A stretch of DNA of 64,000 bases, from assembly GCA_951813545.1 (NCBI GenBank), contig OX638352.1, forward strand, positions 4,294,835-4,358,834, in the 5' to 3' direction. Position numbers and translations under genes: made by a program. Within the stretch, counting starts at the first letter, position 1. Each line of letters begins with the position of its first letter. Source of the DNA: an uncultured Poribacteria bacterium (GTDB lineage: Bacteria; Poribacteria; WGA-4E; WGA-3G). This document shows, piece after piece, positions 28,771 through 63,200 of this stretch. The notes beneath the pieces are model-generated. The model did no database searches, was not told the origin of the DNA, and saw nothing but the letters and a program-made list of their open reading frames with translations.

Positions 28771-29595
28771 TTAGTTCGCCTTAAGCCTGCCCCAAGTCGT
28801 TGCGAGTTTACCTTGCGCTTCCACGGCAGTGAGTGTTGCGCCAAGGCCGTTGTTCATGATATCAGTGACCTCTTCAGCTGTCAAACCGCGTTTCCAGAGG
28901 TTAAAGTCATCCATGAGTCCGGTGAAAGGGCGTTGATTGTCGATGTTAAGGCCGACCCGTGCCCCCTGCCCCCAGTTGTCTGCGATAGGCGTGTCAAGGC
29001 GCGCATTCTCTTCACCGACCTTTTCACCGTTGATATAGAGCACAGCTAATCCGTCTGCACGACTGTAAGTGCCAGCGTAATGTTGCCATTCGTTGGCTTT
29101 GTTTTCACCTGCTCGGACATCAAATATCGTCCTACCGGGGTTAGGTCCCCGATTGAGCCAACGGAAATTTCCGTCCCCACGTGCTTCAGGGTGTACAAGC
29201 CACGTGCCATCGGTTGCGCGGGCGTTGAAAAGCGCCATATCCGATACGGATGCAACGTTAATCCATGCGATAAGACTCATGCCTTCAATGGGAAGGTCTT
29301 CAGGCTTGACATTGGGACCATCTAAATCCAAGAAGCTGCCAGCTGCGAACTGAGCGGCTTTGCCAAACTTCCCGTCATCGGATTGTGTGACATTGCCATT
29401 AATCTCGCCATCGTAGCCACGTCCAGACTTTTCAAGGACGGTATTTCCGTCGAAATCCTCGTAGTCGAAATACAGCACTAAATCCGGATCTAAAATCTGA
29501 GCGGATGCATCCTGAATTCCTGCTATAACCATACAGAGCGTGCCTATCAGAAGTAAGCACATCAGATTAGTGGTTAGTATAAAGTTCCGTTTCAT
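28771..29595 (-). CDS. Secreted LamG-domain protein 1, with KLATTWG tail
   Basis: The 274-residue protein has a signal peptide (about residues 1-33) and then a concanavalin-like LamG jelly roll: LVLYFDYEDFDGNTVLEKSG, EGMSLIAWINV, NEWQHYAGTYSRADGLAVLY, TGLMDDFNLWKRGLTAEEV. After the domain a short link leads to the tail GKLATTWGRLKAN. LamG domains bind carbohydrate or protein ligands, so a role in glycan binding outside the cell is likely, but no enzyme motif is seen. It is the last of three tandem paralogues on the minus strand. Confidence 0.85.
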   Translation of the reverse strand: MKRNFILTTNLMCLLLIGTLCMVIAGIQDASAQILDPDLVLYFDYEDFDGNTVLEKSGRGYDGEINGNVTQSDDGKFGKAAQFAAGSFLDLDGPNVKPEDLPIEGMSLIAWINVASVSDMALFNARATDGTWLVHPEARGDGNFRWLNRGPNPGRTIFDVRAGENKANEWQHYAGTYSRADGLAVLYINGEKVGEENARLDTPIADNWGQGARVGLNIDNQRPFTGLMDDFNLWKRGLTAEEVTDIMNNGLGATLTAVEAQGKLATTWGRLKAN

Positions 29596-29669
29596 CTTTC
29601 AAGGTCCTCCTTTAGATGAATTATTCCTTTACTTTCTTACAACATATAGCCACTTTCACGGGTTTCGCC

Positions 29670-30494
29670 TTACTTTGATGCTTTAAGGTTTCCCCACGTA
29701 GTTGTGAGTTTACCGTGTGCTTCCACAGCAAGAAACGTTTCGACACCGTCGTTCATAATAGCATCAACTTCTTCCGCTGTCAAGCCACGTTTCCAGACGT
29801 TAAGGTCATCCATCAGTCCAGTGAAAGGGCGCTTGTTGTCGATGTTAAAGCCGACCCGTGCCCCCTGCCCCCAGTTGTCTGCGATAGGCGTGTCGAGGCG
29901 CGCCTTTTCTTCACCGACCTTTTTACCGTTGATGTAGAGAATGGCTAATCCATCTGCACGACTGTACGTGCCAGCATAATGCTGCCATTCGTTGGCTACG
30001 TTTTTACCTGCCCGGATATCAAATATCGTCCTATTGGGGTTAGGGCCCCGATTGAGCCAACGGAAATTTCCATCGCCACGTGCTTCAGGGTGTACAAGCC
30101 ACGTGCCATCGGCTGCGCGAGCGTTGAAAATTGCCATATCCGATATGGCTTCAACGTTAATCCACGCGACAATACTCATACCTTCGGTCGGGATGTCATC
30201 AGGATCAACGTTGGGCCCATCTAAGTCAAGGAAGCTGCCGGCTGCGAACTGAGCGGCTTTGCCAAACTTCCCGTCATCGGATTGTGTGACCTTCCCATTA
30301 ATCTCACCATCGTAACCACGTCCGGATTTTTCAGCGACAGTGCCGCCTTTAAAGTCCTCATAATCAAAATACAGGACCAGATCCGGATCTAAAGCCTCAG
30401 CGGACGCGTCCTGAATCTCTGCAATGAGCATACAAAGCGTGCCTACCAGAAGTAAGCACATCAGAGAAGAGGTTAATATAAGGTTGCGTTTCAT
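29670..30494 (-). CDS. Secreted LamG-domain protein 2, with KLTTTWG tail
   Basis: This is a close paralogue of both neighbours and has the same length (274). It has a signal peptide and the LamG core with EGMSIVAWINVEAISDMAIF and TGLMDDLNVWKRGLTAEEV. The tail is GKLTTTWGNLKASK. The three copies are similar over the whole coding sequence with differing intergenic sequences, which suggests tandem duplication followed by some divergence. The ribosome site region (aggatc or aggacc upstream of ATG) is similar in all three. Confidence 0.85.
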   Translation of the reverse strand: MKRNLILTSSLMCLLLVGTLCMLIAEIQDASAEALDPDLVLYFDYEDFKGGTVAEKSGRGYDGEINGKVTQSDDGKFGKAAQFAAGSFLDLDGPNVDPDDIPTEGMSIVAWINVEAISDMAIFNARAADGTWLVHPEARGDGNFRWLNRGPNPNRTIFDIRAGKNVANEWQHYAGTYSRADGLAILYINGKKVGEEKARLDTPIADNWGQGARVGFNIDNKRPFTGLMDDLNVWKRGLTAEEVDAIMNDGVETFLAVEAHGKLTTTWGNLKASK

Positions 30495-30553
30495 CTTTTA
30501 AGATCCTCCTTAGAGATGAACTATTCCTTTTTCATCTTACTTTGATTTTCATC

Positions 30554-31375
30554 TTACTTTGAGGCCTTAAGTCTTCCCCAAGTCGTTGCCAGTTTACCGT
30601 GTGCTTCCACAGCAAGAAACGCTTCAACGCCATCGTTCATAATGGTGTTAACTTCTTCCGCTGTCAAGCCACGTTTCCAGACGTTAAGGTCATCCATCAG
30701 TCCAGCGAACGGACGGTTGTTGTCAATGTTATAGCCGACGCGTGCCCCATTGCCCCAGTCTGGTGCAATAGGCGTGCCGACACGGGCTTTTTCTTCACCC
30801 ACATTTTTTCCGTTGATATAAAGTATGGCTTTCCCATCCGCGCGGCTGAACGTGCCAGCGTAATGCTGCCATTCATTCGCCTCGTTATCTCCAGCCCGAA
30901 TGTCAAAGATAGTCGCGCCGCCAGGACTCCTATTGAGCCAACGATACTTGCCACTACCGCGTGCCTCTGGATGTACAAGCCATGTATTATCCTTCGCACG
31001 CGCATTGAAAATCGCCATATCTGCAACGGCTTCAACGTGGATCCACGCGACAATACTCATACCTTCGGTAGGGATGTCATCAGGCTTAACGTTGGGCCCA
31101 TCTAAATCAAGAAAACTTCCGGTCACGAAGTGGGCGGCTTTGCCAAACTTTCCATCATTGGATTGTGTGACCTTCCCATTAATCTCACCATCGTAACCAC
31201 GTCCAGATTTTTCAACGACGGTACCGCCTTTGAAATCCTCATAATCAAAATACAGGACCAAATCCGGATCTAAAACCTCAGCGGACACGTTTTGAATTTC
31301 CGTTGTAGGCATACAAAGAGCACCTATCAGAAATAAGCACATCAAATTAGAGGTTAATATAAGGTTGCGTTTCAT
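30554..31375 (-). CDS. Secreted LamG-domain protein 3, with KLATTWG tail
   Basis: This is the first gene of the tandem trio (273 residues). It has a signal peptide, then a LamG core (LVLYFDYEDFKGGTVVEKSG, EGMSIVAWIHVEAVADMAIF) and the tail GKLATTWGRLKASK. A one-residue deletion relative to the others falls in the NRSPGGATIF loop. It is divergent from kdsB with a 200-base gap that is AT-rich and probably holds both promoters. Confidence 0.85.
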   Translation of the reverse strand: MKRNLILTSNLMCLFLIGALCMPTTEIQNVSAEVLDPDLVLYFDYEDFKGGTVVEKSGRGYDGEINGKVTQSNDGKFGKAAHFVTGSFLDLDGPNVKPDDIPTEGMSIVAWIHVEAVADMAIFNARAKDNTWLVHPEARGSGKYRWLNRSPGGATIFDIRAGDNEANEWQHYAGTFSRADGKAILYINGKNVGEEKARVGTPIAPDWGNGARVGYNIDNNRPFAGLMDDLNVWKRGLTAEEVNTIMNDGVEAFLAVEAHGKLATTWGRLKASK

Positions 31376-31574
31376 CTTCTGAATCCTCCTTTAGATGAAC
31401 CATACTTTACTTTATTTTTCACACCTAACCACTTGTATTTTAAGTTTATCACTTTTCCATTCATGTATGCAACTGAAAATGGAAAAAATCTTGATTTTAA
31501 GTTCGCTTTGGGTTAAACTGATTTAGAATACGAATAGAAAATACATAGGAAAGTCTATGGTTTTGTGAGGGAAC

Positions 31575-32312
31575 GTGAGGTTGAAAAGTGTAGGAATTAT
31601 CCCAGCTCGCTATGCCTCAAGCCGTTTTGAGGGCAAGCCGTTGGTGAATCTTCTGGGGAAACCGATGGTGCAGCACGTTTATGAAAGCGCGTGCCGTGCA
31701 AAGACACTGGATGAAGTGATTGTTGCTACGGATGACCGGCGGATTTACGATGCTGTAAAGCAATTTGGCGGAAACGTCCAGATGACGGGTGATTGTGCAA
31801 CCGGTACTGAGCGGGTCGCTGTTGTCGCAGAACGGTTGACGTGTGATATTGTTGCCAACATCCAAGGGGACGAACCGCTGCTTGAGCCGGTACAGATAGA
31901 CATGATGCTGCAGCCTTTCATTGACAGACCGGATGTGCAGGTTTGCACGTTAAAACAACGGGTTGAAACTGACAAGGATTATCGGGACGTTAACGTCGTT
32001 AAAGTTGTTACAAATCTTCAGGACGATGCCTTATATTTTTCACGTGCATCTATGCCCGGGAAAATCCCTCAAACCGAACTGCACAGATTCCCTGTGTATC
32101 GGCATGTCGGTCTGTACGCTTACCGTCGCGAGCAGCTCCTCGCTTTCACAAAGTGGGACAGCACACCTTATGAACTTGCGGAGGGGTTAGAACAATTGCG
32201 CTTTTTAGAACACGGTGTTCCTATTCACGTCGTTGAAACAGATATCCCTCTTATTGGGGTTGATGTTCCTGCTGACTTGGAACGGGTTAAACAAATTTTG
32301 GAGGCTTCATAA
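31575..32312 (+). CDS. kdsB: 3-deoxy-manno-octulosonate cytidylyltransferase
   Basis: The 245-residue enzyme activates Kdo with CTP to CMP-Kdo, the donor for the inner core of lipopolysaccharide. The GTG start gives GIIPARYASSRFEGKPLVNL, the nucleotide-binding opening of the family. MVQHVYESA, TGTERVA and NIQGDEPL follow, all standard for KdsB. It lies 10 bases upstream of pyrG, whose product supplies its CTP. Its presence implies a Gram-negative envelope with Kdo. Confidence 0.95.
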   Translation: MRLKSVGIIPARYASSRFEGKPLVNLLGKPMVQHVYESACRAKTLDEVIVATDDRRIYDAVKQFGGNVQMTGDCATGTERVAVVAERLTCDIVANIQGDEPLLEPVQIDMMLQPFIDRPDVQVCTLKQRVETDKDYRDVNVVKVVTNLQDDALYFSRASMPGKIPQTELHRFPVYRHVGLYAYRREQLLAFTKWDSTPYELAEGLEQLRFLEHGVPIHVVETDIPLIGVDVPADLERVKQILEAS

Positions 32313-32322
32313 AGAAATTTTC

Positions 32323-33942
32323 ATGACAAAGTACATTTTCGTAACGGGTGGAGTTATCTCAGGGATTGGTAAAGGTATCACAACTGCGGCACTGGGCAGA
32401 TTGCTCATCAATCGTGGGTTTAAGGTAATTGTTGTCAAAATTGATCCGTATCTCAATGTGGATGCGGGTGTGATGAACCCGTTTCAACATGGTGAGGTTT
32501 TCGTCACTCGTGATGGTGCGGAAACGGATCTCGACCTAGGGAATTACGAAAGGTTTCTTGGCATAGATCTGAACAAGTACTCTAACTTTACGACAGGCTC
32601 CATCTATAGTGAAGTAATTGCGAAGGAACGGCGGGGTGATTATCTCGGTGAAACAGTGCAGCTGATTCCGCATATTACTGATGAGATCAAACGCCGTATC
32701 TATCAGATTGGGGAGGATAACGAAGCCGAAATCGTCATTACTGAGATAGGTGGAACGATCGGTGACTTTGAGATGCCACCGTTTGTCGAAGCCATCCGAC
32801 AAATGGCAGTTGAGGTAGGACGCGAAAATACGATGTTCCTCCATGTATCGCTTATTTACACCTTACCTAACGGTGAGAGCAAAAGTAAACCGACACAACA
32901 TAGCATCCGTAAACTCCAAGAGTTGGGGGTCCAGCCAGATGTGCTGCTTTGCCGCACCAGCCAGACGTTGGATGAAGCCTTCCGTCAGAAAATTGCGCTC
33001 CTTTGTGGTATTGCTGAAGAATGTATTTTTGAAGGACTGGACACAAAGTGCGTTGATGAAATCCCGCTCAATTTTGAACGGCAAGGGATGGGACATCTCG
33101 TTTCAAAAAGACTTGGACTTGAGGCGCGCGCACCGATGGATGCTGAATGGGTCGCGATGGTCGAAAAACTGAAAAACCCAAAGCAGGAAGCCCGAATTGC
33201 GATTGTTGGAAAATACACAACCGGCAGCGATGCCTATATCAGTGTGCAGGAAGCCCTCAAACATGGCGGAATCGCCAACGAAGCGGCTGTCGAAATTGAG
33301 TGGATAGAAGCGGAGTCGCTCACAGAACATCCAGATCTTGATAGTGTTTTTGAAAATGTCGATGGGATACTGGTTCCAGGCGGATTCGGTTATCGCGGAA
33401 TTGAAGGAATGTTGGTTGCTGCACGATACGCCCGTGAAAATAACATTCCGTATTTGGGATTATGTCTTGGAATGCAGTGTCTCGTCATTGAGTTTGCCCG
33501 GCACGTCGCGAAATTAAAAAATGCAAATAGCACAGAAGTAGATGAGAATACACCTTATCCCGTTATAGATTTAATGCATGAACAGCGTGCAGTAGCTGAC
33601 CTCGGCGCAACAATGCGACTCGGACATTATCCCTGCGTCCTCAAAGAAAACACCAAAAGTTATGATGCCTATCAGCAGCCTATTATTTTGGAGCGTCACC
33701 GTCATCGCTACGAATTGAATAACCAATACCGCTCACAATTGGAAGCAGCGGGTCTCTGTTTTAGTGGGATGTCGCCGGATGAAAGCCTTGTCGAAATCGC
33801 TGAGGTAACCGATCATCCGTGGATGGTAGGTTCACAATTTCATCCTGAATTTCAATCGAAACCGCTTGAACCGCACCCACTTTTCCGGGAATTTATCGCA
33901 GCGGCGCTCTCCCATCAGTGCAAAGATGAAGATATAAAATGA
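32323..33942 (+). CDS. pyrG: CTP synthase
   Basis: The ATG at 32323 gives the canonical start MTKYIFVTGGVISGIGKGIT; the frame runs left to 32215 inside kdsB and that part is not used. The 539-residue enzyme converts UTP to CTP with glutamine nitrogen. The synthase domain has the P-loop-like GVISGIGKG and the KIDPYLNVDAGVMNPFQHGE stretch. The C-terminal glutaminase has its Cys in GLCLGMQC and His and Glu in GSQFHPEFQS. It follows kdsB by 10 bases. Confidence 0.97.
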   Translation: MTKYIFVTGGVISGIGKGITTAALGRLLINRGFKVIVVKIDPYLNVDAGVMNPFQHGEVFVTRDGAETDLDLGNYERFLGIDLNKYSNFTTGSIYSEVIAKERRGDYLGETVQLIPHITDEIKRRIYQIGEDNEAEIVITEIGGTIGDFEMPPFVEAIRQMAVEVGRENTMFLHVSLIYTLPNGESKSKPTQHSIRKLQELGVQPDVLLCRTSQTLDEAFRQKIALLCGIAEECIFEGLDTKCVDEIPLNFERQGMGHLVSKRLGLEARAPMDAEWVAMVEKLKNPKQEARIAIVGKYTTGSDAYISVQEALKHGGIANEAAVEIEWIEAESLTEHPDLDSVFENVDGILVPGGFGYRGIEGMLVAARYARENNIPYLGLCLGMQCLVIEFARHVAKLKNANSTEVDENTPYPVIDLMHEQRAVADLGATMRLGHYPCVLKENTKSYDAYQQPIILERHRHRYELNNQYRSQLEAAGLCFSGMSPDESLVEIAEVTDHPWMVGSQFHPEFQSKPLEPHPLFREFIAAALSHQCKDEDIK

Positions 33943-33985
33943 GTAGTTCCTAAATAGTTTTTTTCTATGTTTCTGTATGTTTTTC

Positions 33986-34015
33986 TTCACATTTCGTGTA
34001 GAAAAGTAGTATAAT
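33986..34015 (+). promoter_or_regulatory. Sigma-70-type promoter for tnpB
   Basis: TTCACA at 33986-33991 and TATAAT at 34010-34015 are separated by 18 bases. A start near 34021-34024 would make the transcript begin at the structured leader. Confidence 0.6.
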
Positions 34016-34020
34016 GATAG

Positions 34021-34109
34021 TATCTCGTGGCGAGGACTTGTCAGCCGCACGCAAGTGCGGTCTCCTCGCCGACCGACTCTGACAAGCGGTAAAAACGAGA
34101 TACGAGATA
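34021..34109 (+). ncRNA. Structured leader with nested and crossing stems before tnpB
   Basis: Complementary arms are: tatctcgt (34021-34028) with acgagata (34095-34102, repeated at 34102-34109); ggcgagga (34029-34036) with tcctcgcc (34063-34070); cttgtcag (34037-34044) with ctgacaag (34079-34086); and ccgcac with gtgcgg around a gcaa loop (34045-34060). The cttgtcag pair crosses the ggcgagga pair, so the RNA must form a pseudoknot or switch between two folds. Left ends of IS200/IS605 elements carry hairpins, which is one explanation; a control leader is another. Confidence 0.5.
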
Positions 34110-34116
34110 TACCCAA

Positions 34117-35211
34117 ATGGCATTAGAAGCACACAAGATAGCGTTGCGCGCTACAGCAAAACAGCGGTCATGGTTTGCCCAACAATGCGGTTATGCGCGT
34201 GTTGCTTTCAACTATGGACTCTCTGATTTCAAAGACGGTTTGTCGAAAGACGAATGGCGTTCTGCTCGGACGTTGCGCCAACGGTTCAACGCCGCAAAAC
34301 GTGAGAAGTTTGACTGGTGCGGTGCCTGTGATCAGCGCGCCTCTGCGTATGCGTTTGAGAATCTTGGTGATGCTATCAAACGTTGGAAGCATGGAGTAAA
34401 TAAGTTTCCGAAGTATAAAAAGCGTTCACACCGCCAGTCCTATACGATTGAAGGTGCAAAGGTAAAAATAGAAAACAAACATATCCGTCTCCCGAAAATT
34501 GGGAAAGTTCATATGTTTGAATCATTGAGATTTGAAGGTGAAATACGTCAGGTTACTATATCAAGGAAAGCCCATCGTTGGTTTGTCTCTATTCTGGTCG
34601 AAACAGGAACACCTCATACTCCGCGTGAGACACGCGGACTCCCTGTCGTCGGAATAGACGTAGGTATAAACTCACTTGCTACACTTGATAACGGTAAACA
34701 GTATCCAAACCCAAGACCGCTGAAAAGGTATGAACGCAAGTTAAAGCGTGAGCAACGTAAAATGAGCCGTAAAGTATTTCTATCTAACAACTGGTATAAG
34801 CAAAAACGTATAGTAGAACGTATCCACTATAAAATTGCTTCTATCCGTGAGGACGCACACTATAAAGCGACAACGGAGATAGTTAAGAATGCGAGTGCTA
34901 TCGGTATTGAAACGCTGAAGATTACGAACATGCTCAAGAATCAGAAACTGGCGAAAGCCTTATCGGATTCAGCGATCGGTGGTTTTCTGGCGAAACTCAA
35001 ATCCAAAGCCGAAGGGTTGGGTATACCTGTTGTAGAAGCCCCGCAGTTTTTCGCCTCAAGCAAGACCTGTAGCCGCTGCGGTGATAAGAAAGAAGATTTA
35101 TCACTATCAGAAAGGCAATATCATTGCCAAAGTTGCGGTTTCACAGAAGACCGCGACGTAAATGCTGCTATCAACCTAAGAACCATCGTGTGCGGTTCGC
35201 ATGAGATGTAA
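34117..35211 (+). CDS. tnpB: TnpB, IS200/IS605-family RNA-guided nuclease
   Basis: The 364-residue protein belongs to the OrfB/IS1341 group, ancestor of Cas12 nucleases. It has a RuvC-like nuclease with Asp in VVGIDVGINSLATL, Glu in AIGIETLKI and Asp in TEDRDVNAAINL. Between the last two lies a zinc ribbon (SKTCSRCGDKK...YHCQSCG). All catalytic residues are present, so the protein may be active. No TnpA lies next to it, so it is a TnpB-only element needing TnpA in trans. It sits between pyrG and the LarA-like genes. Confidence 0.92.
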   Translation: MALEAHKIALRATAKQRSWFAQQCGYARVAFNYGLSDFKDGLSKDEWRSARTLRQRFNAAKREKFDWCGACDQRASAYAFENLGDAIKRWKHGVNKFPKYKKRSHRQSYTIEGAKVKIENKHIRLPKIGKVHMFESLRFEGEIRQVTISRKAHRWFVSILVETGTPHTPRETRGLPVVGIDVGINSLATLDNGKQYPNPRPLKRYERKLKREQRKMSRKVFLSNNWYKQKRIVERIHYKIASIREDAHYKATTEIVKNASAIGIETLKITNMLKNQKLAKALSDSAIGGFLAKLKSKAEGLGIPVVEAPQFFASSKTCSRCGDKKEDLSLSERQYHCQSCGFTEDRDVNAAINLRTIVCGSHEM

Positions 35212-35280
35212 AACGCCTGTCGAGTCCGTGTAAGACCTCGTTGGAAGGCAGTGGACGCTGAAGCAGGAACACTAAAACTG
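35140..35280 (+). ncRNA. Possible reRNA (guide RNA scaffold) at the tnpB 3' end
   Basis: TnpB guide RNAs overlap the 3' end of the gene and run to the right end of the element. After the stop, the sequence gtcgagtccgtgtaagacct leads to gtggacgctgaagcaggaac, a G/A-rich ending like other TnpB right ends. The guide would be the bases just outside the element, near 35268 onward. The end is a guess from family knowledge; no second copy is present to define it. Confidence 0.3.
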
Positions 35281-35326
35281 ATGTTTACATTCAGAAACAC
35301 AGTTTTGAAGGAACAGGAAACACGTA

Positions 35327-36577: not shown

Positions 36578-36627
36578 ATTCTCATTCGTAAGTCGCTATA
36601 CAGATGCCGCCCCGCTGGGGAAGTTTA

Positions 36628-40058: not shown

Positions 40059-40853
40059 TTATTGCCTTGCTTTCAATTCACCCCACGTGACAGCCAACTT
40101 TCCAACGGCTTTGACATCCAAACTGATATCCATCATTTCACCAATCTCTTTTTCCTCAAGGGCACGTTCCCAAAAAGAGATTTCATCAATGATACCCTCA
40201 GCACCATTGGTCAAAGCGATGTACTGAATCGTTTCCCATCCGAATCTCGGTTTTTCGTGTAACTTCGGGAAACCACCGCCCATCTTCTTACCACTGGTTG
40301 CCGCTTCTTTTCCATCAATGTACAGGAACGGATTTCCACCATCGAAATCCCACGTCGCTGCAACATGAAACCATTTATCCTTCGTTATGACACCTGCGGG
40401 ATCAAATTCAACATCTTGCCAATCTGCATCATCAGCCGCTTCAAAATAGAAGCCGAAGTCTTCAGGGTTGATGTCCGCGTGGTTAGCACCTTTGGAGACA
40501 AAAAAGTAGATAGGTCCAAAACTGGCATCGAAAATCCGGTAATCGTCGCCGTCTTTGCCGTTCCAATCGGGTTTGAACCAAAAAAGCAGACTTCCTGCCT
40601 CAGTGATAACATTAGGAACTTCAAGGAAAGTTTCCTTGCCTCTAAGGGAAATACCAGCGTTATATTTGCCGTCTGCAACCCATTTTGCTGCGCCGCCAAA
40701 CGTCCCATCGTTTCCGTTACCGGTGCCGTCAACTGCTTTGTTACCACTGCCTTCACCAATCCACAAAAGTAGATTTTTGTCGTCAGGGATTCCTGCGAAT
40801 GCAGAAGCGACAACAAATGTACTAATCAGTAGAACCAAGTAAACTTGTTTCAC
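40059..40853 (-). CDS. Secreted LamG-domain protein 4, with KLAVTWG tail
   Basis: GTG at 40853 is preferred because gggagga lies 9 bases upstream; the open frame begins 18 bases earlier. A signal peptide (VYLVLLISTFVVASAFA) leads to a LamG-like domain (NLLLWIGEGSGNKAVDGTG, GSLLFWFKPDWNG, WFHVAATWDFDGGNPFLYID, GIIDEISFWERALEEKEI). It is distant from the trio at 28.8-31.4 kb in sequence, yet ends in the same tail (GKLAVTWGELKARQ). Probable role: binding of glycan or protein outside the cell. Confidence 0.82.
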   Translation of the reverse strand: MKQVYLVLLISTFVVASAFAGIPDDKNLLLWIGEGSGNKAVDGTGNGNDGTFGGAAKWVADGKYNAGISLRGKETFLEVPNVITEAGSLLFWFKPDWNGKDGDDYRIFDASFGPIYFFVSKGANHADINPEDFGFYFEAADDADWQDVEFDPAGVITKDKWFHVAATWDFDGGNPFLYIDGKEAATSGKKMGGGFPKLHEKPRFGWETIQYIALTNGAEGIIDEISFWERALEEKEIGEMMDISLDVKAVGKLAVTWGELKARQ

Positions 40854-53433: not shown

Positions 53434-53441
53434 TCAATACT

Positions 53442-55979: not shown

Positions 55980-56030
55980 ACTGGACAGACTACTAGTAGT
56001 TCATCAACATTGAGTTTGAGGTAAAGTGTG

Positions 56031-56060
56031 TTGACTTTTTGAGATGTTCTGTGATATATT
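56031..56060 (+). promoter_or_regulatory. Promoter of IS630 transposase 2
   Basis: TTGACT at 56031-56036 and TATATT at 56055-56060 have an 18-base spacer, 38 bases before the ATG at 56099. Confidence 0.65.
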
Positions 56061-56098
56061 CTTCCTATGATTTGAATCTCATTTCCAAGAGGTCTGCG

Positions 56099-56566
56099 AT
56101 GAAAAAACATAGAGTTGAGCTGACGTGTGAAGAGCGTCAAACGCTACAAACATTAGTCCGCAAGGGACAACACAGTGCGCTGAAACTCATGCGTGCCCAC
56201 ATCTTGCTGAAAGCAGATAGCCATGGACCCGGCTGGACGGATGCGCAAATCGCCGAGGCGTTTGGGTATCATGAGCAAACCGCCTACAATGTTCGCAAAC
56301 GTTTTGCGACGGGCGGGAGACTCTCCGCCTTGGAACGCAAACCCCAAAGTCGCCCCTCTCACGTGCGGAAACTTGAGGGTCAAGGTGAGGCGCGTTTGAT
56401 AGCCTTGGCTTGTAGCGATCCGCCCGAAGGGTTTGCGCGCTGGACATTACAACTCCTTGCTGATGAACTCGTTGAACTTCAGATTGTTGAAAGTATCTCT
56501 ATTGAAACGATCCGACAGACCCTAAAAAAAACGCCTTACGTCCGCATCGGTCGTCCTATTGGGTGA
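56099..56566 (+). CDS. IS630 transposase 2, first ORF
   Basis: ATG at 56099 is favoured over the upstream in-frame codon at 56039, which lies within the promoter. It has the helix-turn-helix GPGWTDAQIAEAFGYHEQTA. Eight A at 56524-56531 lie at the end. The -1 frame reads KKNALRPHRSSYWVIPPDED into the second ORF, which matches the family, so programmed frameshifting is likely. The tail TPYVRIGRPIG is the unshifted product. Confidence 0.88.
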   Translation: MKKHRVELTCEERQTLQTLVRKGQHSALKLMRAHILLKADSHGPGWTDAQIAEAFGYHEQTAYNVRKRFATGGRLSALERKPQSRPSHVRKLEGQGEARLIALACSDPPEGFARWTLQLLADELVELQIVESISIETIRQTLKKTPYVRIGRPIG

Positions 56567-57228
56567 TCCCGCCGGATGAAGACGCAGACTTCGTTGCGGC
56601 GATGGAGGCGGTCTTAGAGGTTTACCAGCGCCCTGAAGACGCGCGGTTTGCCGTTGTCGCTATGGATGAACGTCCCGTGCAGTTGCTCAAAGACATCCGG
56701 TCCCCTGTGCCTCCGAAACCCGGGCGCATCGCACGTATCGATTACGAGTATAAGCGCATTGGCGTGGTTTCTGCTTTCTTATTTACCAACCCCCTTCAAG
56801 GGTGGCGACGGGTCTCGGTGCGTCAACGCCGCACGGCCATAGATTGGGCAGAGGAAGTCAAGTATCTCTTGGAGAAAGTCTATCCGGATGTTGAGCGAGT
56901 GACATTAGTTTGCGATAATCTCAATACACATAAACTTACCTCTCTGTATAAAGCCTTTCCTGCCGAGGAGGCACTTGGGTTGTCTTCACGTTTAGAGTTA
57001 GTTTACACCCCGAAGCATGGGAGTTGGTTGAATATCGCTGAGATTGAGTTGAGTGTATTTTCAAGGCAGGGTCTGAACCGGCGGATCCCTGACTTGGAGA
57101 CGCTTCGGTCAGAAGCAGAAGCTTGGCAGAAGCATCGCAATCCGAACGCAGGTCGCGTCGACTGGCGATTTACGACACAAGACGCACGCATCAAACTCAA
57201 ACGACTATACCCTAACACTCAATGTTGA
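56563..57228 (+). CDS. IS630 transposase 2, second ORF (DDE part)
   Basis: The catalytic part has Asp in VAMDERPVQL, Asp in LVCDNLNTH and Glu in GSWLNIAEIELSVF. The frame is -1 to the first ORF and overlaps it by 4 bases. The terminal NTQC codons reach into the right inverted end. It appears intact. Confidence 0.88.
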   Translation: MIPPDEDADFVAAMEAVLEVYQRPEDARFAVVAMDERPVQLLKDIRSPVPPKPGRIARIDYEYKRIGVVSAFLFTNPLQGWRRVSVRQRRTAIDWAEEVKYLLEKVYPDVERVTLVCDNLNTHKLTSLYKAFPAEEALGLSSRLELVYTPKHGSWLNIAEIELSVFSRQGLNRRIPDLETLRSEAEAWQKHRNPNAGRVDWRFTTQDARIKLKRLYPNTQC

Positions 57229-57596
57229 TGCACTACTAGCTTCTTGTTCAGTCATCTGTCTTTCCTCCAAGGAGTTCTTGCTGCACCCACACACCAATGA
57301 TTCAGGTTGGCAGGGATTCGCGAACATCGGTTTCTGACCAATTTTTCAAATTTGAGTAAATTAACATGAGTTCAACTTAAGACTTTAACGCATAAGATTG
57401 AATCACATTAGTTACTACTAAGCTAAGCAAATTTAAGCTAAGCAAATTTCATGCCAACTCCTCTAAGGAACCGCAAGATTTGTGTTAAAACACAGGCACT
57501 GATCGGGTATAGGTTAGGTTAAGCAGTAAAAAACGAGCCTCTATCAACACAAATACAGGTTTGGTTTTCCCACAAGACGCTCGTGGAGATAACTCT

Positions 57597-57722
57597 ATGG
57601 AAACTCAACATCTCAATCCGATTGACGAGTATGTTATGAAAGGTTGGGATTCATTCACTTTTTGCAAAAAACATCAAGAAGTATCATGGAAATCTGAGGA
57701 TTTTTGCGCTGAATACCTCTGA
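57597..57722 (+). CDS. Possible small ORF, 41 residues
   Basis: An ATG preceded by gtggagataactct opens a 41-residue frame (METQHLNPIDEYVMKGWDSF...). It ends 8 bases before the stop of the minus-strand gene at 57731. No match is recognised; it could be the start of a truncated gene. The rest of the 57239-57596 interval shows no gene and is AT-rich. Confidence 0.3.
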   Translation: METQHLNPIDEYVMKGWDSFTFCKKHQEVSWKSEDFCAEYL

Positions 57723-57730
57723 TATGTCAT

Positions 57731-58165
57731 CTATTTCGTGCGTACAAGAATTAATATGACGATAATGACACAGAGGATCAGGACCCAGAACATAGGGACA
57801 GAGCCTTGGAAAAAGTCCATAATAGTGTTCTTTTTCGTCATCTTAAGTGGCACGAAATGATCTCCGCCATTAACAATCGTAACAGGTTTGCCAAGCCGAT
57901 CACCGTATCCCTCTTTGTAAATGCTGATCAGATACCGCCCTGCGGGGACGCCTGATTTTTCATAATCACCATTCGCATCTGTCTTTGTTGTAAATTCCGT
58001 GCCGTCTTGGGCAACAATTACGACTTCAACGCCCTCAATCGGGTTCTGTCTTTCGGTTGTATCAACAATCTGTCCACGGACGGTGCCTCCGTGTTGTGCG
58101 AAGACAATTCCCACAGATATAATCGTATAGGCAACGAAAATTAATGCTAAACTTAAACGCGTCAT
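57731..58165 (-). CDS. Exported CarboxypepD_reg-like protein with C-terminal membrane anchor
   Basis: ATG at 58165 follows aaggagga and gives a signal peptide (LSLALIFVAYTIISVGIVFA); the longer frame to 58303 lies inside the next gene and is not used. Residues about 28-110 form a carboxypeptidase-regulatory-like beta sandwich (GTVRGQIVDT, GVEVVIVAQDGTEFTTKTDA, GRYLISIYKEGYG). The end is a hydrophobic anchor (MFWVLILCVIIVILILV). The role may be binding or scaffolding in the envelope. Confidence 0.75.
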   Translation of the reverse strand: MTRLSLALIFVAYTIISVGIVFAQHGGTVRGQIVDTTERQNPIEGVEVVIVAQDGTEFTTKTDANGDYEKSGVPAGRYLISIYKEGYGDRLGKPVTIVNGGDHFVPLKMTKKNTIMDFFQGSVPMFWVLILCVIIVILILVRTK

Positions 58166-58202
58166 TGCTCTATTCCTCCTTGGATCGGAAACTGTGGTAG
58201 TG

Positions 58203-59051
58203 CTATTTTCCAGCGTTCGCGAGTAGGCGTTGGAGCGTTCCTCCCAAAATCTCTGCCTTGTCTGTTTCTGGAACAAATGTACAGTGTGTTCGGAACGCCT
58301 CAAGCGCGTGCTGGTACGTCATAAAGTTGCGAACGACCGGATAGTCGGACCCCCAGCAGAGACGACCGGGTCCAAAATGTTCATAGAGGGCACGCACAAT
58401 CCAATGCGTATCCGACTGCGGATAATCCCACGAGGCCTGTGAAACATAGGCGAATCCTGACATCTTGATATGAATATTCGGTAGATCTGCCGAGGCAAGC
58501 ACCTGCTTCAGTTGCGGATACGGGTGTTCTTCACCCGCTCGTGCGCCACCCATGTGATGGCAGAGAAATGGAACTGTGGGGAACTGCCCGGCAAGTTTTC
58601 GGAGTGGTTCGTGCTGGTGGCTTCCCATAGCTATGCTGGCGATGAGTCCCATTTCAACTGTTGTCTGAAAAAAGCGTTGTCCATCTTCAGAAAAAAACCA
58701 ACTCCCATCGTCATCGCCTCTGAGATAGTGCGTGTAGCCTTTGAGGGTGTATGTCTCTGCAGCTGCCTGCAGGCGATCAGCTGCACCCGGCGTGTGGTAT
58801 GTTTCTGTCCATGAACAATCTACATCGGCAAATTGAATCAACCGCTCTGGATAACGTTTGACGCACGCTGCGACGTAATCGTTATTTTCTGGATTTCTGT
58901 CAATGCGCGCACAGATAAGCACTGCTTTGTCAACGTTGTGCAGATCCATTTCGTGGAGGAGTTGTTCGACTTTGCCGCGACTCTCATCATCAGGGACAGG
59001 GGGTTGATAGGGCCAGCGGGACCAGGCATGTGTATGGGAATCAATTATCAT
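58203..59051 (-). CDS. Amidohydrolase family protein (Amidohydro_2)
   Basis: The 282-residue TIM-barrel metal enzyme has the first metal motif MIIDSHTHAW at the N-terminus, then a strand with PFLCHHMGGARAG (His) and the final Asp in LCWGSDYPVVRN. This matches the 2-pyrone-4,6-dicarboxylate lactonase / aminocarboxymuconate decarboxylase group. It is 51 bases downstream of the BMP-type ATPase on the same strand, so it may act on the imported compound or a breakdown product. Confidence 0.87.
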   Translation of the reverse strand: MIIDSHTHAWSRWPYQPPVPDDESRGKVEQLLHEMDLHNVDKAVLICARIDRNPENNDYVAACVKRYPERLIQFADVDCSWTETYHTPGAADRLQAAAETYTLKGYTHYLRGDDDGSWFFSEDGQRFFQTTVEMGLIASIAMGSHQHEPLRKLAGQFPTVPFLCHHMGGARAGEEHPYPQLKQVLASADLPNIHIKMSGFAYVSQASWDYPQSDTHWIVRALYEHFGPGRLCWGSDYPVVRNFMTYQHALEAFRTHCTFVPETDKAEILGGTLQRLLANAGK

Positions 59052-59102
59052 TTTTTTCTCCTGAGAGAGTTTCCTATTTGCTGGCGAGGTTTCTAACTCC
59101 GT

Positions 59103-60629
59103 TTAATTTAACCCCAGCATTAAGGCACCCAATTCTTGTTTGTTCGTTTCTTCGGGTTTTACAGTCCCGACGATTTTTCCGTTGTACATCACCGCGATTC
59201 TATCGCTGAGATGGAGTAGTTCGTCTAATTCGGAGGAGACGAGTAAAACAGCTTTTGCACGATTGCGCGCCCGAATAAGCCGCGTGTGGACGAATTCTGC
59301 TGCGTGAATATCTAACCCTCGCGTCGGGTGTGCGGCAATAATTACTTCGGGATTCGCTTCTAATTCACGGGCAACAACGACCTTCTGCTGATTTCCACCG
59401 GAGAGTGTCCGTATCGGATGTGTGATGTCCCCAACACGAATCTGGTATTTATCGAGTGCATTTAGGGCAGACCGCTGGATTGATTTACGCTGGAGTATCC
59501 CGTGCCGACAGAACCGTCTGTTTCTGTGATGTCCAATGATGAAATTGTCATCAATTCGATCGTTCAAGCTAATTCCATGCCTGTGTCTATCGGCGGGGAC
59601 GTGCGCAATCCGTTCACTGTTTGATGTAAGCGTTCCACTATCAATTTGCCGTAAACCTGTTAGCACTTGAATCAGTTCTGTCTGTCCGTTTCCTTCCACG
59701 CCTGCTATGCCGACAATCTCACCAGGGAAGACTTCAAGGTTAATTTCGTCAAGGTACCGTTTGTCGGACTGCCTATTTGTGATTGCGTTTTTCCATTTAC
59801 GTTTTCTTGTGGTGTTTACACTTCCAGAAAGCGTAACGTTTTCTAGGCGGAGCAACGGCGTTGTATTTTCAGTGTGCTCCCGCGTCACGGAGGTTGGAAT
59901 AACAGGCTCACCAAGAATCATTTCCGCCAATGTTGCCGGATCGGTGTCGGAAATAGGACAGGAGGCGACGGTTTGTCCGCGTCTCATCACCGTGACGGTA
60001 TCGGCTATTGCCATGACTTCATCAAGTTTGTGTGTGATGATAACGAGACTTTTCCCTTCACTTTTGAGGCTACGCATACAGTTAAAAAGCCCTTCTACTT
60101 CTTGTGGTGCAAGTACTGCTGTCGGTTCATCCATAATTAGGATATCCGCGCCATGGTAAAGAACTTTCAGGATCTCGGTGTGTTGCTGTGCCCCAATTGG
60201 TAGAGATTCGACAGGAACGTTCAGTGGGACATCAAAACCGAGCTGCGCCGCGAGTGCCGCAATCCTTTTTTCTCCCTGTTGGTAGTCAAGCAGTGCGCCG
60301 AATTTGCGCGGTTCTTTGGCAAGGATAATGTTTTGAAGAGCCGTAAAAATGGGGATAAGTGTGAAGTGTTGCTGAACCATTCCCAAGCCGAGGCGCATCG
60401 CACGCCGCGGAGAAGGGATGGCTACAGAGTCTCCATTGACGAAAATCTCGCCTGTATCGGGTTGATACAGTCCGTAGAGAATTTTCATCAGTGTAGATTT
60501 GCCTGCCCCATTTTCACCAACAATCGCGTGAATCTCGCCGTGCCGGAGTGTAAAGTCCACATCGGCGTTTGCCTGTACGTGTCCAAACCGCTTGCTGATG
60601 TCGTGCATCTCGATAATTGGAGCTACCAT
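59103..60629 (-). CDS. ABC transporter ATPase with two NBDs, BMP-associated (NupO/YufO type)
   Basis: The 508-residue double ATPase has first Walker A GENGAGKST and Walker B ILIMDEPTAVL. The second half has a family-typical altered Walker A (GVEGNGQTEL, lacking Lys), signature LSGGNQQKVVVARE and AAHPTRGLDIHA. One intact and one modified site is normal for nucleoside/sugar importers of this type. The gene follows the binding-protein gene by 5 bases. The permeases that would complete it are not adjacent; the best candidates are at 15273-17406. Confidence 0.9.
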   Translation of the reverse strand: MVAPIIEMHDISKRFGHVQANADVDFTLRHGEIHAIVGENGAGKSTLMKILYGLYQPDTGEIFVNGDSVAIPSPRRAMRLGLGMVQQHFTLIPIFTALQNIILAKEPRKFGALLDYQQGEKRIAALAAQLGFDVPLNVPVESLPIGAQQHTEILKVLYHGADILIMDEPTAVLAPQEVEGLFNCMRSLKSEGKSLVIITHKLDEVMAIADTVTVMRRGQTVASCPISDTDPATLAEMILGEPVIPTSVTREHTENTTPLLRLENVTLSGSVNTTRKRKWKNAITNRQSDKRYLDEINLEVFPGEIVGIAGVEGNGQTELIQVLTGLRQIDSGTLTSNSERIAHVPADRHRHGISLNDRIDDNFIIGHHRNRRFCRHGILQRKSIQRSALNALDKYQIRVGDITHPIRTLSGGNQQKVVVARELEANPEVIIAAHPTRGLDIHAAEFVHTRLIRARNRAKAVLLVSSELDELLHLSDRIAVMYNGKIVGTVKPEETNKQELGALMLGLN

Positions 60630-60634
60630 TTCTA

Positions 60635-61609
60635 CTACCGTTCGTGCGGAACAACGATGTCGCCCGCGATAATTTTCGCCTTGAATGCTTCAACCTGTTT
60701 CAAAATTTCGTCCGAGAGAAGTTCGCGGTTGATGTCATCAACGATGTACGCAACCCCACCCTCTTTAAGCCCATAATCTTTTAAGCCTCCAGAGAAGTTT
60801 CCTTCCTGGACACTCTTTATCGTTTCATAGACGGATATTTCCACACCTTTGATAACGCTCGTAAGCACTAATCCCGGGGCAAGGTGGTTACCGTTAGAAT
60901 CAACCCAAATGATCAATTTTTTTGTGGCTTTCGCAGCTTCAAGCACGCCCAAACCACTTGCCCCTGCAGCAGCAAGGATAACGTCTATTCCACGGTTGTA
61001 TTGCGTGAGGGCGAGTTCTTTGGCTTTTGCCGGATCGTTGAAGGCTTGCGGTGTGACACCCACATAATCCGCCATGAATTCAATATCAGGGTTCGTTGCC
61101 TTAATGCCAGCACCGAAACCGATTTCAAAAGCCTCGACCAGTGGTACTTTCATCCCGCCGATGAAACCGATCTGCTTTGTTTCTGTTTTCAACGCTGCAA
61201 TGATACCGGCAAGAAATGTTCCTTCATGTGCTCGGTAGGTGAGTGACGCGACATTCGGTTGTTCTATGACTGCGTCAATAAGCGCGAACTTGACATCTGG
61301 AAAATCGCTTGCAACACGCTTCATCGGTTCTTGAAAGAGAAAACCAACGCCGATGATAAGATCGTATTTCAGTTTCGCGAGCCTGCGAAGCGTCAATTCG
61401 GTGTCTGTGCTGAGGCTTGGAGTAACCTCTGTGAGTTTAAACCCCCATTCGTCTTTTGCTTTTTTCGCGCCTGCGTAGGCGGCATCACAAAATGAGAGAT
61501 CACCGCGTCCGGTGACATCGTAGATGAGACCGACTTTCAGTGCCGCCGGAGCCGGCTCTATCACGGCAAAACAGACAACAAAAACCGTAACCAAAATCCT
61601 TATGTGCAA
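60635..61609 (-). CDS. BMP-family substrate-binding protein (Bmp/PnrA-like)
   Basis: The 324-residue exported protein has a signal peptide (about residues 1-22) and a BMP-type core: LKVGLIYDVTGRGDLSF, VSDFPDVK-like region with DFPDVKFALIDAV, VASLTYRAHEGTFLAGIIAA and IGFIGGMKVPLVEAFEIGF. Members bind purine nucleosides or similar ligands. There is no lipobox Cys in the signal, unlike many Bmp lipoproteins. It starts a bmp-ATPase-amidohydrolase order on the minus strand. Confidence 0.9.
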   Translation of the reverse strand: MHIRILVTVFVVCFAVIEPAPAALKVGLIYDVTGRGDLSFCDAAYAGAKKAKDEWGFKLTEVTPSLSTDTELTLRRLAKLKYDLIIGVGFLFQEPMKRVASDFPDVKFALIDAVIEQPNVASLTYRAHEGTFLAGIIAALKTETKQIGFIGGMKVPLVEAFEIGFGAGIKATNPDIEFMADYVGVTPQAFNDPAKAKELALTQYNRGIDVILAAAGASGLGVLEAAKATKKLIIWVDSNGNHLAPGLVLTSVIKGVEISVYETIKSVQEGNFSGGLKDYGLKEGGVAYIVDDINRELLSDEILKQVEAFKAKIIAGDIVVPHER

Positions 61610-61682
61610 AATATTCTCCTTTCTACTCTCATAACTTTTGATAAATAGGGAAGGACGCGACTCAATACTATCTGTGATAGAC

Positions 61683-62033
61683 CCCGCCCTAAAGGGTGAG
61701 GCTTCTGCAAAAGTTTTACAGAAGCATTCGTGCGATCAACGACCACTGCTTTGAGTCAAAGACTTACGGAGCCTACTGCAACAGACGCTACCCTCGGGGA
61801 AACACCCTATCAAAAACACTGCGACACAAAAGTGTCCTTACGAAAAGTTTGATACACGATTTCAAAAGGAATTCAGCATTACCTGTCTTTTCCTACTGTG
61901 TATGTCGAGCTACGATTGAGGATAGTTCGTTTTAGAACTTTACACTATAGAAACGCTATCACAAGCTACGTAACCAAAGCCTCTATAGCAACCACTCTGG
62001 TAGTATTATACCTTATTTATAAGGTTTTTTCAA
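61683..62033 (-). other. Orphan promoter and hairpin-ended non-coding segment
   Basis: On the minus strand, TTGAAA (62033-62028) and TATAAT (62010-62005) have a 17-base spacer. No ORF with a good start follows. About 300 bases on, the strand has a near-palindrome (61701-61725) and a stem around cctttaggg (about 61684-61698). The end gaagcctcaccctttagggc resembles the right end of TnpB-type IS605 elements. It may be a deleted IS605 derivative or a small RNA gene. Plus-strand frames here are not credible. Confidence 0.4.
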
Positions 62034-62143
62034 CGCAAAGCAACACAGAAGGACACGCCTACATCGCCGCGCTAAATCATGGGGTTTTGGCGTGAAGAAC
62101 TGATAATATATCATAGCAGCTTCAAATGCAAGTGTTATTATTT

Positions 62144-62392
62144 TTAGGACTTACGCAATTTTTCCATGAAACGCCACGTATTATACCAAATTCATTTGAT
62201 TCATCATCTTCACATACCGCTCCGCTGGAGCGGAAGATGGCAAACTCCACGTGTACTATAGACATACCGCTCCGCTGGAGCGGAAGAGTGGAAAAAGCAC
62301 TGGAAAAACGAGACGAATTACGTTAATTTGGTATTACACCACTGAGCGAGGTTAAGAAACCTCGCCAGCAAGGGGGCTGCGTAAGTCCTAAT
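62144..62392. repeat. Nested inverted-repeat element with tandem hairpins
   Basis: Outer arms ttaggacttacgca (62144) and tgcgtaagtcctaa (62378) are perfect 14-base inverted repeats. Inside, ataccaaatt (62183) and aatttggtat (62325) form a second pair. Within that a 26-base unit with a ccgctcc/ggagcgg hairpin occurs twice (62212-62237 and 62262-62287). Between the second pair and the right end is an 8-bp stem, gcgaggtt with aacctcgc. It looks like one MITE inserted in another. Confidence 0.65.
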
Positions 62393-62519
62393 TTTTTGAA
62401 GTTCCTGTTGACTTTTTTATTTTTTAAAGGTATTCTATTTACAAAATTCCCACTGTTGTAATAGTGAGGAATGGATTGGCAAATGTCTAAATTAGATTGA
62501 CAAAGAAGGAGGAGAGACT

Positions 62520-63200
62520 ATGAGAACAGTTATCACAGTACCGAAATTAGCGGCATTAAGTCTCATTGTGCTTTTCGGTGTGGCACTTTCACTACCAACG
62601 TACGCAGGTACCCAATTGTGGGATTTTGAGAAAAAGCACGATGACTGGAAAGTTGCCAATGGAAATTGGGAAATCAAAGGTGGAGTCTACCATGTAGACA
62701 GGGGTGGAAGAGCTGAACACTCTCTCGTTGGTGAAGAGAAGTGGGACGACTACACCATTGAAGCAAAAGTCCGATTGGATGAGCACAATTGGGCAGGTAT
62801 CGTTTTTCGAGCGCAGAGCGAAATGGAGTACTACGTCTATTACCTCAACGTTCCCAATAACATAGTAGAACTTTGGCGACACAAAAAAGGTGACTGGACT
62901 GCCCGTGACAATATCGTGAAAACCCCTCCTGTTAAAGGGGACAAGATAGAAAACGGCAAATGGATTGATATGAAGGTCGTCGTTGAAGGCAATGAATTTG
63001 CAGTGTATCTCAACGGTAAACTTCAGGCTGAGAATAAAGATGATGTCTACAAAACCGGTCAAGTCGGTGTGTGGGCATGGGAAACCGAGGCAAGTTTTGA
63101 TGATTTCACCGTTAGCGGCGATAATATCAAGGATACCCTTGCTGTTGACCCACATCGGAAATTAGCAACCACATGGGCGCGTCTCAAACGAGTTTACTAA
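62520..63200 (+). CDS. Secreted jelly-roll protein (DUF1080-like) 1, with KLATTWA tail
   Basis: The 226-residue protein has a signal peptide (ending LSLPTYAG) and then a beta jelly roll like the 3-keto-disaccharide hydrolase/DUF1080 group: TQLWDFEKKHDDWKVANGNW, VDRGGRAEHSL, YTIEAKVRLDEHNWAGIVFR, WAWETEASFDDFTVSG. The end, VDPHRKLATTWARLKRVY, matches the tail of the LamG proteins at 28.8-31.4 and 40.1 kb. Enzyme activity is uncertain; binding of glycan is equally likely. A GGAGGAG site precedes the ATG. Confidence 0.82.
   Translation: MRTVITVPKLAALSLIVLFGVALSLPTYAGTQLWDFEKKHDDWKVANGNWEIKGGVYHVDRGGRAEHSLVGEEKWDDYTIEAKVRLDEHNWAGIVFRAQSEMEYYVYYLNVPNNIVELWRHKKGDWTARDNIVKTPPVKGDKIENGKWIDMKVVVEGNEFAVYLNGKLQAENKDDVYKTGQVGVWAWETEASFDDFTVSGDNIKDTLAVDPHRKLATTWARLKRVY

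What the first reader, a model, noticed from the sequence alone, without database searches (positions are those of the whole stretch)
28771..63200. Shared C-terminal KLxxTWxxLK tail on secreted proteins with different domains
Five exported proteins end in nearly the same tail: KLATTWGRLKAN (28771), KLTTTWGNLKASK (29670), KLATTWGRLKASK (30554), KLAVTWGELKARQ (40059) and KLATTWARLKRVY (62520). The first three are close paralogues, so their agreement means little. The 40059 LamG protein is distant from them, and the 62520 protein has a different DUF1080-like domain, yet the tail is kept at the very end in each. Conservation at the C-terminus across differing domains resembles a sorting or anchoring tag such as Por secretion domains or PEP-CTERM, but the motif has no hydrophobic stretch or Cys, so it would be a different type. 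I know of no described system with it.
Basis: partly seen in the sequence, partly recalled or inferred. Interest (0 to 1): 0.78.

Follow-up and report, generated by a model that had tools for sequence, protein, structure and literature searches.

The report
Phylum-wide tail tag on exported proteins
In a phylum of bacteria known from marine sponges, proteins of many different kinds that leave the cell interior end in the same short tail, more than a hundred of them in the genome studied, which looks like an address or anchor label of a type not described before.

Summary
The five tails are real and are the local edge of something larger. The genome is poribacterial. The codon pattern for KLxxTWxxLK occurs 60 times in it against 0 for the reversed pattern, always 11-20 residues before a stop. 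A tail profile finds 144 places at E<=0.001 (150 of 276 candidates scored), and 84 of 84 genomes of the phylum match the pattern. The motif is V-[ED]-[PA]-x-x-K-L-[AT]-T-T-W-[GA]-x-L-K plus usually 1-4 free residues. Its bodies fall in 22 sequence clusters: LamG, 3-keto-hydrolase/CBM66-like, CBM9, F5/8, beta-propellers, ankyrin and others. Carriers have signal-like starts (110 of 121, against 80 of 214 other ORFs). The cytosolic paralogues read, and one lipoprotein-like one, lack the tail. Models make it a separate low-confidence helix after a complete fold, not the last strand. No Pfam or NCBIfam model matches it; it lacks the membrane segment of PEP-CTERM-type tags. The same motif, often degenerate, can stand directly before type IX secretion CTDs, and the phylum encodes SprA, PorV and C25 homologues. 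Best reading: a modular envelope sorting or anchoring helix read by an unidentified receptor. No dedicated linked gene was found; the function is untested.

The parts
28771..29595 (-). exported LamG protein, 274 aa, ends ...AVEAQGKLATTWGRLKAN; tail core at 28780-28809
29670..30494 (-). exported paralogue of 28771, 274 aa, ends ...AVEAHGKLTTTWGNLKASK; tail core at 29682-29711
30554..31375 (-). exported paralogue of 28771, 273 aa, ends ...AVEAHGKLATTWGRLKASK; tail core at 30566-30595
40059..40838 (-). exported LamG protein (start uncertain; ORF to 40871), ends ...DVKAVGKLAVTWGELKARQ; tail core at 40071-40100; model: tail is a separate helix, residues 244-258 of 259
62520..63200 (+). exported 3keto-disac_hyd/CBM66-like protein, 226 aa, ends ...AVDPHRKLATTWARLKRVY; tail core at 63159-63188; model: tail is a separate helix, residues 211-225
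63393..64000 (+). tandem paralogue of 62520, cut by the window end; its tail AVDPNRKLATTWARLKRVY lies just outside the window

Best explanation
The tail is a modular C-terminal localisation tag of Poribacteria. SHOWN: about 20 residues at the very C-terminus, one consensus on many different bodies, present in every genome of the phylum searched, on proteins with signal-like starts, and under protein-level selection. INFERRED: after Sec export the tail forms a short amphipathic helix. V-[ED]-P would start the helix; L, W and L would line one face, with Lys at both ends. A dedicated envelope receptor, not yet identified, would dock this helix and so sort the protein to, or hold it at, the cell envelope or surface. 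In logic it works like PEP-CTERM or MYXO-CTERM tags (one C-terminal label, many cargoes), but by a helix without a membrane segment. Because the same motif can stand directly in front of type IX CTDs, where the sortase would cut, the receptor may be part of the outer-membrane attachment machinery.
For: Pattern: 60 matches against 0 control in the own genome, all near a stop. Profile: 150 hits from 150 scored of 276 candidates, 144 at E<=0.001. 84 of 84 phylum genomes. 22 body clusters among 182 proteins of 120 aa or more; LamG, 3keto, CBM9, CBM4_9, F5/8, PD40 and Kelch propellers, ankyrin, DUF3108-like and others. Signal-like start from a Met within 80 residues of the frame: 110 of 121 readable own carriers, 80 of 214 other ORFs of 190-450 aa. 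Of 96 own LamG matches 90 have a tail; the six without are one lipoprotein-like protein, two without signal peptide, two large proteins and one broken frame. Three 3keto paralogues without signal peptide have no tail. Of 20 proteins flagged as lipoproteins 16 have no tail. Models: separate helix after the fold.
Against: No receptor, protease or dedicated linked gene was found. The helix is predicted at pLDDT about 46-50 only. The location of any carrier is unknown. Carriers are dominated by lectin-like jelly rolls (90 of 150 profile hits lie behind a LamG or 3keto match). 77 proteins called exported by a crude rule have neither tail nor CTD, though six of them have a degenerate tail by eye. 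Four carriers were flagged as lipoproteins; three look ordinary by eye, one (L190:9623) is ambiguous. Two large LamG proteins with signal peptide have no tail. In CTD fusions the motif is internal and often degenerate, so a free C-terminus is not strictly needed.
Confidence: 0.6

Rival explanations
1. The tail belongs to the type IX secretion pathway itself: either a minimal second secretion signal, or the mark of the mature C-terminus where a PorU-like C25 sortase cuts and attaches cargo. Tail-only proteins would end, or be trimmed, where CTD proteins are cut.
For: SprA matches in 83 of 84 genomes (own whole protein E 2e-45, 154 bits), PorV in 29 of 29 sampled, 28 over the cut-off, C25 peptidase in 83 of 84; 0 of 14 control genomes ring in each. 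A W-G/A-x-x-K junction directly before the CTD in 53 of 84 genomes, control 0, at nearly fixed spacing. The last Lys is followed by at least one residue in 131 of 131 own tails, mode 3, and the residues after it vary freely, even replaced by a repeated element.
Against: The tail has none of the known CTD motifs and no match to TIGR04183. Of 29 own CTD regions read only 2 carry the motif, one of them degenerate with W changed to F. A tail gene beside sprA was seen in one genus only. Tails end 2-4 residues after Lys far more often than a freely cut extension should (98 of 131).
Confidence: 0.25
2. The tail is a non-specific amphipathic membrane anchor that binds lipid headgroups, with no protein receptor.
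For: L, W and L fall on one helix face with Lys at both ends (helix-wheel reasoning on the logo); few if any carriers are lipoproteins.
Against: In the low-scoring profile hits read, W and the last Lys are kept; lipid binding would accept F, Y, L or R. Against this: by eye one very degenerate tail has R for the last Lys (L198:4346) and one CTD linker has F for W (L339).
Confidence: 0.1
3. The tail drives assembly of the carrier proteins with each other into a matrix or fibre (tail to tail or tail to body).
For: Very many paralogous small lectin-like carriers in this genome; 21 of 59 carriers match NCBIfam's TafC fimbrial model.
Against: The bodies that carry it are too different to share a surface, and the short tails alone match no NCBIfam model. 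No assembly evidence.
Confidence: 0.07
4. The tail is part of the domain fold (last strand or cap), or a functionless 3-prime module carried along.
For: More than half of the profile hits are behind LamG or 3keto domains (90 of 150).
Against: Different folds carry it; both models put it outside the fold, and CBM66, the best structural match of 62520, is complete in 161-165 residues; selection at protein level.
Confidence: 0.04

Closest known systems
PEP-CTERM/exosortase, GlyGly-CTERM/rhombosortase, MYXO-CTERM/myxosortase tags
   Same: One short C-terminal label on many different Sec-exported proteins; MYXO-CTERM is also found throughout a phylum with dozens of carriers per genome (PMC11980579, passages seen).
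   Different: Those are tripartite with a transmembrane helix and a basic end and are read by membrane proteases; this tail has no hydrophobic segment, no Cys or GlyGly, and no known reader.
Type IX secretion CTDs: type A (TIGR04183), type B, and the short CTDs of Prevotella intermedia
   Same: C-terminal label on Sec-exported proteins; the same genome carries type A CTDs, and the tail motif can stand directly before one.
   Different: CTDs are beta domains of about 100 residues or more (short ones 43-55) with Gly/Tyr motifs B, D and E (PMC11969387 and PMC12618676, passages seen); the tail is about 17-20 residues, predicted helical, and lacks these motifs.
Encapsulation peptides of microcompartments and encapsulins (recalled, not looked up)
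   Same: Short terminal, probably amphipathic helix after a loose linker.
   Different: Those label cytosolic cargo; here the carriers have signal-like starts.

Membership tests
PEP-CTERM / GlyGly-CTERM / MYXO-CTERM tags | hydrophobic transmembrane segment before a basic end | tested here: not met
   Logo of the tails has no hydrophobic run; no NCBIfam model matches any of 72 tails even at E 10
PEP-CTERM / GlyGly-CTERM / MYXO-CTERM tags | many different Sec-exported carriers in one genome | tested here: met
   144 profile hits at E<=0.001, 22 body clusters, signal-like starts in 110 of 121
PEP-CTERM / GlyGly-CTERM / MYXO-CTERM tags | partner membrane protease | tested here: inconclusive
   No plausible recurrent neighbour; presence-absence profiling was not possible because all 84 genomes carry the tail
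Type IX secretion CTD (type A, or short CTD) | match to TIGR04183, or motifs B, D and E in at least 43 residues | tested here: not met
   No NCBIfam match to tails; logo lacks Gly-x-Tyr
Type IX secretion system present in the genome | SprA translocon, PorV shuttle, C25 sortase-type protease, CTD cargo | tested here: met
   SprA is divergent, below NCBIfam's 200-bit cut-off in all genomes but one (G006, whose match is of another type)
Type IX secretion system present in the genome | motor and ring proteins (GldL/M/N, PorK) | not tested
Lipoprotein | lipobox Cys after the signal peptide | tested here: not met
   3 of 131 carriers flagged, 4 flagged by a second rule; all but L190:9623 look like ordinary signal peptides by eye
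Encapsulation peptide | cytosolic cargo | tested here: not met
   signal-like starts in 110 of 121 carriers
Encapsulation peptide | amphipathic helix | tested here: inconclusive
   helix predicted, pLDDT about 46-50
Part of the LamG jelly roll | tail forms the last strand or occurs only on this fold | tested here: not met

The most novel reading that the evidence does not exclude
A phylum-wide protein sorting pathway of a new type: a free C-terminal amphipathic helix without membrane segment, lipid or Cys, read by an unknown Poribacteria-specific receptor of the outer envelope. It would sort or anchor well over a hundred lectin-like and other proteins in a genome such as this one, share its address code with the junction where type IX cargo is cut, and so build the cell's coat towards the sponge matrix.
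Probability: 0.35. Interest if true: 0.9.

Novelty: new variant of a known kind. Interest (0 to 1): 0.78.

Why it matters
It would give a one-line rule for much of the exported proteome of an uncultured phylum abundant in sponges, and a handle for finding its sorting machine. It also reopens a question stated in 2014: Kamke et al. (PMC3909097, passages seen) saw Por-type sorting domains in Poribacteria but reported no structural genes of the secretion system. SprA, C25 and PorV homologues are found here in 83 of 84, 83 of 84 and 29 of 29 genomes searched.

Tried and rejected
Jelly-roll strand: rejected by models and by different carriers. Chance motif: rejected by controls. DNA-level repeat: rejected by third codon positions near background. 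Known tag model: no Pfam or NCBIfam match beyond two chance hits of one tail each, and no convincing PDB match. Linkage to sprA: a tail gene directly beside sprA in 3 of 20 neighbourhoods where own-type SprA was found, all three in one genus; some neighbourhoods are cut by contig ends; a 21st (G006) had no own-type SprA. Linked machinery by neighbourhood: recurrent neighbours are FG-GAP/ASPIC (18 of 124 tail loci, 3 of 20 control loci), TPR (18, 1), oxidoreductases (12, 7), ECF-sigma fusion (10, 1) and FGE-sulfatase-type proteins (10, 0); none is a plausible reader and the control set was small. CTD remnant: the extension DYSKTRK resembles a CTD end but continues as nearly the same sequence past the stop, so it is a repeated DNA element. 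L084, titled Pseudomonadota: first taken for misbinning, but a homologous tail protein sits on a 2.8 Mb contig of another genome of its group, so rare exchange is as likely. Ten paper searches listed no description of the tail; exact tail strings gave 0 papers. PMC5087111 (passages) has nothing on it. Own slips: notes once said 147 profile hits at E<1e-3, one search gives 144; one search took only 93 of 124 tail loci because of a naming error and was repeated whole; the signal rule was too lenient and was replaced with a control; 4 of 205 collected tails were repeats and were dropped.
Full report
OBSERVATION. With a 22-position tail profile they score 31.6-37.6 bits; nothing else in the window exceeds 4.7, and reversed peptides reach 4.9. 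LamG is found in 28771 and 40059 and 3keto-disac_hyd in 62520; these matches end at residues 243 of 274, 232 of 259 and 198 of 226, 15-20 residues before the K of the tail.

GENOME AND PHYLUM. The genome is poribacterial: genomes that the tool calls same genus, same family and so on share contig lengths with records titled Poribacteria (G081:C1 with OX639973.1, G046:C1 with OY282386.1, G030:C5 with PYJD01000005.1). In the window's own genome (6.1 Mb) the codon pattern for KLxxTWxxLK has 60 matches; the reversed pattern has 0. I read all 60: 58 by regular expression and two with F for L. In each the first K lies 11-20 residues before the stop codon. A profile search scored 150 of 276 candidates and all 150 passed E 1: 144 at E<=0.001 and six between 0.003 and 0.0125. 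One of the 150 is the internal CTD fusion described below, and three frames hold a stop. Because scoring stopped at 150, the true number may be higher. The profile was run on this genome only. In the phylum 84 of 84 genomes match the pattern, with 1 to 70 matches each against 0-2 for the control. I read the first 80: of 112 motif places in them 111 end within 20 residues of a stop and one (L101) is internal; one of the 111 (L124) is a chance 24-aa frame. In 58 genomes grouped with G084, whose record is titled Pseudomonadota (the tool does not name the group), there are 19 matches against 11 for the control. Only two of the 19 sit at the C-terminus of a long ORF with a signal-like start, in G084 and G112. 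The G112 protein is related to the G084 proteins (E 2e-10) and to a poribacterial protein (E 2e-12). So the tail is characteristic of the phylum, with rare occurrence outside.

ANATOMY. Over 201 distinct tails, aligned on the first K: V at -5 in 193 of 200, E or D at -4 in 149 of 200, P or A at -3 in 184 of 201, G or D at -1 in 134 of 201, L at +1 in 195, L at +8 in 190. K, T4, W and the last K were fixed by the search patterns, and the named loci (108 of the 201) were found with a stricter pattern that also asked for T at +3 and G at +6; V, E/D and P/A were asked for by none. In the 60 own tails T at +3 is kept in 45 and G or A at +6 in 55. In the low-scoring profile hits read, W and the last K stay while T and L may change; by eye one very degenerate tail has R for the last K (L198:4346). 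After the last K there is at least one residue in 131 of 131 own tails; three is commonest (59), then two (26), four (13) and one (11). Codon positions 1+2 agree at 0.80 between the 60 own tails and third positions at 0.35, with 0.30 in the DNA upstream, so the protein sequence is what is kept.

CARRIERS. Tail-free bodies of 182 proteins fall in 22 clusters at E<1e-3; the largest, 119, is LamG with 3keto-type. Clusters are single-linkage and some may be distantly related. Pfam over 59 own carriers: Laminin_G_3 29, 3keto-disac_hyd 9, Glyco_hydro_59_C 5, Pentaxin 4, CBM9 2, F5/8 2, single CBM4_9, PD40 and others. Twenty further scans (19 of 24 picked representatives plus L084) add ankyrin repeats, a Kelch propeller, DUF3108-like and DUF7383, and nine proteins have no match. 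Signal-like starts: 131 own tail ORFs, of which four are cut and six are short frames; of the 121 others 110 have a Met start with a hydrophobic stretch within the first 80 residues of the frame, 120 if V and L are also taken as starts. The same rule gives 80 and 117 of 214 other ORFs of 190-450 aa from the same DNA. Among 96 own LamG matches 81 have a profile tail within 150 bases and nine more have one when read. The six without are a lipoprotein-like protein (L378/L415), two proteins without signal peptide (L400, whose first 11 residues were not read, and L411), two large ones with a signal peptide (L412, L413) and a broken frame (L404). Among 15 3keto matches 11 have a profile tail and one a tail by eye; the other three are read without signal peptide and without tail. 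By another crude rule 16 of 20 flagged lipoproteins have no tail; of the four that do, three look like ordinary signal peptides and one is ambiguous. By that rule 77 proteins called exported have neither tail nor CTD, six of them with a degenerate tail by eye. So the tail is common but not general on exported proteins. The pattern, tail on exported forms and not on the cytosolic or lipoprotein-like paralogues read, is the best sign of a localisation role, but rests on few paralogues.

STRUCTURE. AlphaFold2 for 40059 (38 rows): last strand 214-223, LamG helix 229-238, then helix 244-258 in the tail, with pLDDT 46-50 there. For 62520 (9 rows): last strand 191-201, tail helix 211-225, pLDDT near 48. 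Foldseek: 62520 matches CBM66, complete in 161-165 residues (TM up to 0.88 on the target); 40059 matches a GH43 accessory domain and many generic jelly rolls. So the tail is added to a complete fold. That it is an amphipathic helix is a weak prediction plus helix-wheel reasoning.

LINK TO TYPE IX SECRETION. The own genome has 33 Por-tail (TIGR04183) matches over the cut-off by themselves and three more, in two frames, counted over it with their neighbours. In one 632-aa protein the tail motif stands directly before the CTD: VAVEPTGKLSTTWGKVKAAEVFQNYPNPFNPETW. A pattern for such a junction (W-G or W-A, two residues, the last Lys, then the CTD start) matches in 53 of 84 genomes, control 0. In the 30 loci read it is in frame before the CTD at nearly fixed spacing; most keep VEP and K before W, often as KQ with changed Thr, and a few (L286, L287, L289) are very degenerate; by eye the proteins look like WD40 and FG-GAP/ASPIC types. 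In the own genome 2 of 29 CTD regions read have it, one degenerate with F for W (L340 repeats L266 and is counted once). SprA is matched in 83 of 84 genomes but below the curated cut-off in all but one; the own 2250-aa protein matches at E 2e-45. C25 peptidases: 83 of 84. PorV: 29 of 29 sampled, 28 over the cut-off. In each of these three searches 0 of 14 control genomes ring. Kamke et al. 2014 reported that structural genes were not found (PMC3909097, passages). The motor proteins were not tested. A tail gene lies beside sprA in three of 20 neighbourhoods, all in one genus, so there is no conserved linkage.

MECHANISM. Committed reading: after Sec export the tail helix docks to a receptor of the envelope and fixes the location of the carrier. 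Shown: modularity, phylum-wide use, export signals, selection. Inferred: helix, receptor, location. The type IX link is suggestive (same junction, same genomes) but circumstantial.

COMPARISON. In logic it resembles PEP-CTERM, GlyGly-CTERM and MYXO-CTERM; it fails their defining transmembrane segment (features from PMC11980579, passages). It fails type A and short CTD features (PMC11969387 and PMC12618676, passages). It is therefore not filed in any of these families. Ten searches of a library of open papers listed no description; most subscription papers are not in that library.

LIMITS. Signal peptides and lipoboxes were called by simple rules. Genomes are mostly drafts without names. No experiment exists.

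Noticed in passing
G000:C1:2180972-2187724 (L323:4973-11725): Divergent SprA/Sov translocon, 2250 aa; matches to its family in 83 of 84 Poribacteria genomes.
   Followed up: partly
G000:C1:3573513, 2218427, 3848965 (L407-L409): Three giant C25 (gingipain-clan) proteases in frames of 1729-2137 aa, each ending in a Por-type CTD.
   Followed up: partly
L191, L266, L224: Tail followed by the same DYSKTRK and nearly the same sequence past the stop: a repeated DNA element placed just after the tail's last Lys.
   Followed up: partly
L182, L205, L210, L224, L404: Several tail or LamG genes are in short or interrupted frames, suggesting turnover of this large paralogous family.
   Followed up: no
L084 (G084) and L435 (G112): Tail-bearing protein family outside Poribacteria, related to the end of a poribacterial ankyrin-type protein; by eye L084 is protease-like with GQFGAP in place of GDSGGP.
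   Followed up: partly
G006:C30 (L359): An SprA of Bacteroidota-like score (508 bits) with no blastp match to the usual poribacterial one; possibly contamination.
   Followed up: no
L208:7099-10089: ECF sigma factor fused to a sortilin/BNR-type propeller, recurrent near tail genes (10 of 124 loci against 1 of 20).
   Followed up: no
window 62520-64000 and on to G000:C1:4359719: Three tandem 3keto/CBM66-like tail genes, the second cut by the window end.
   Followed up: yes
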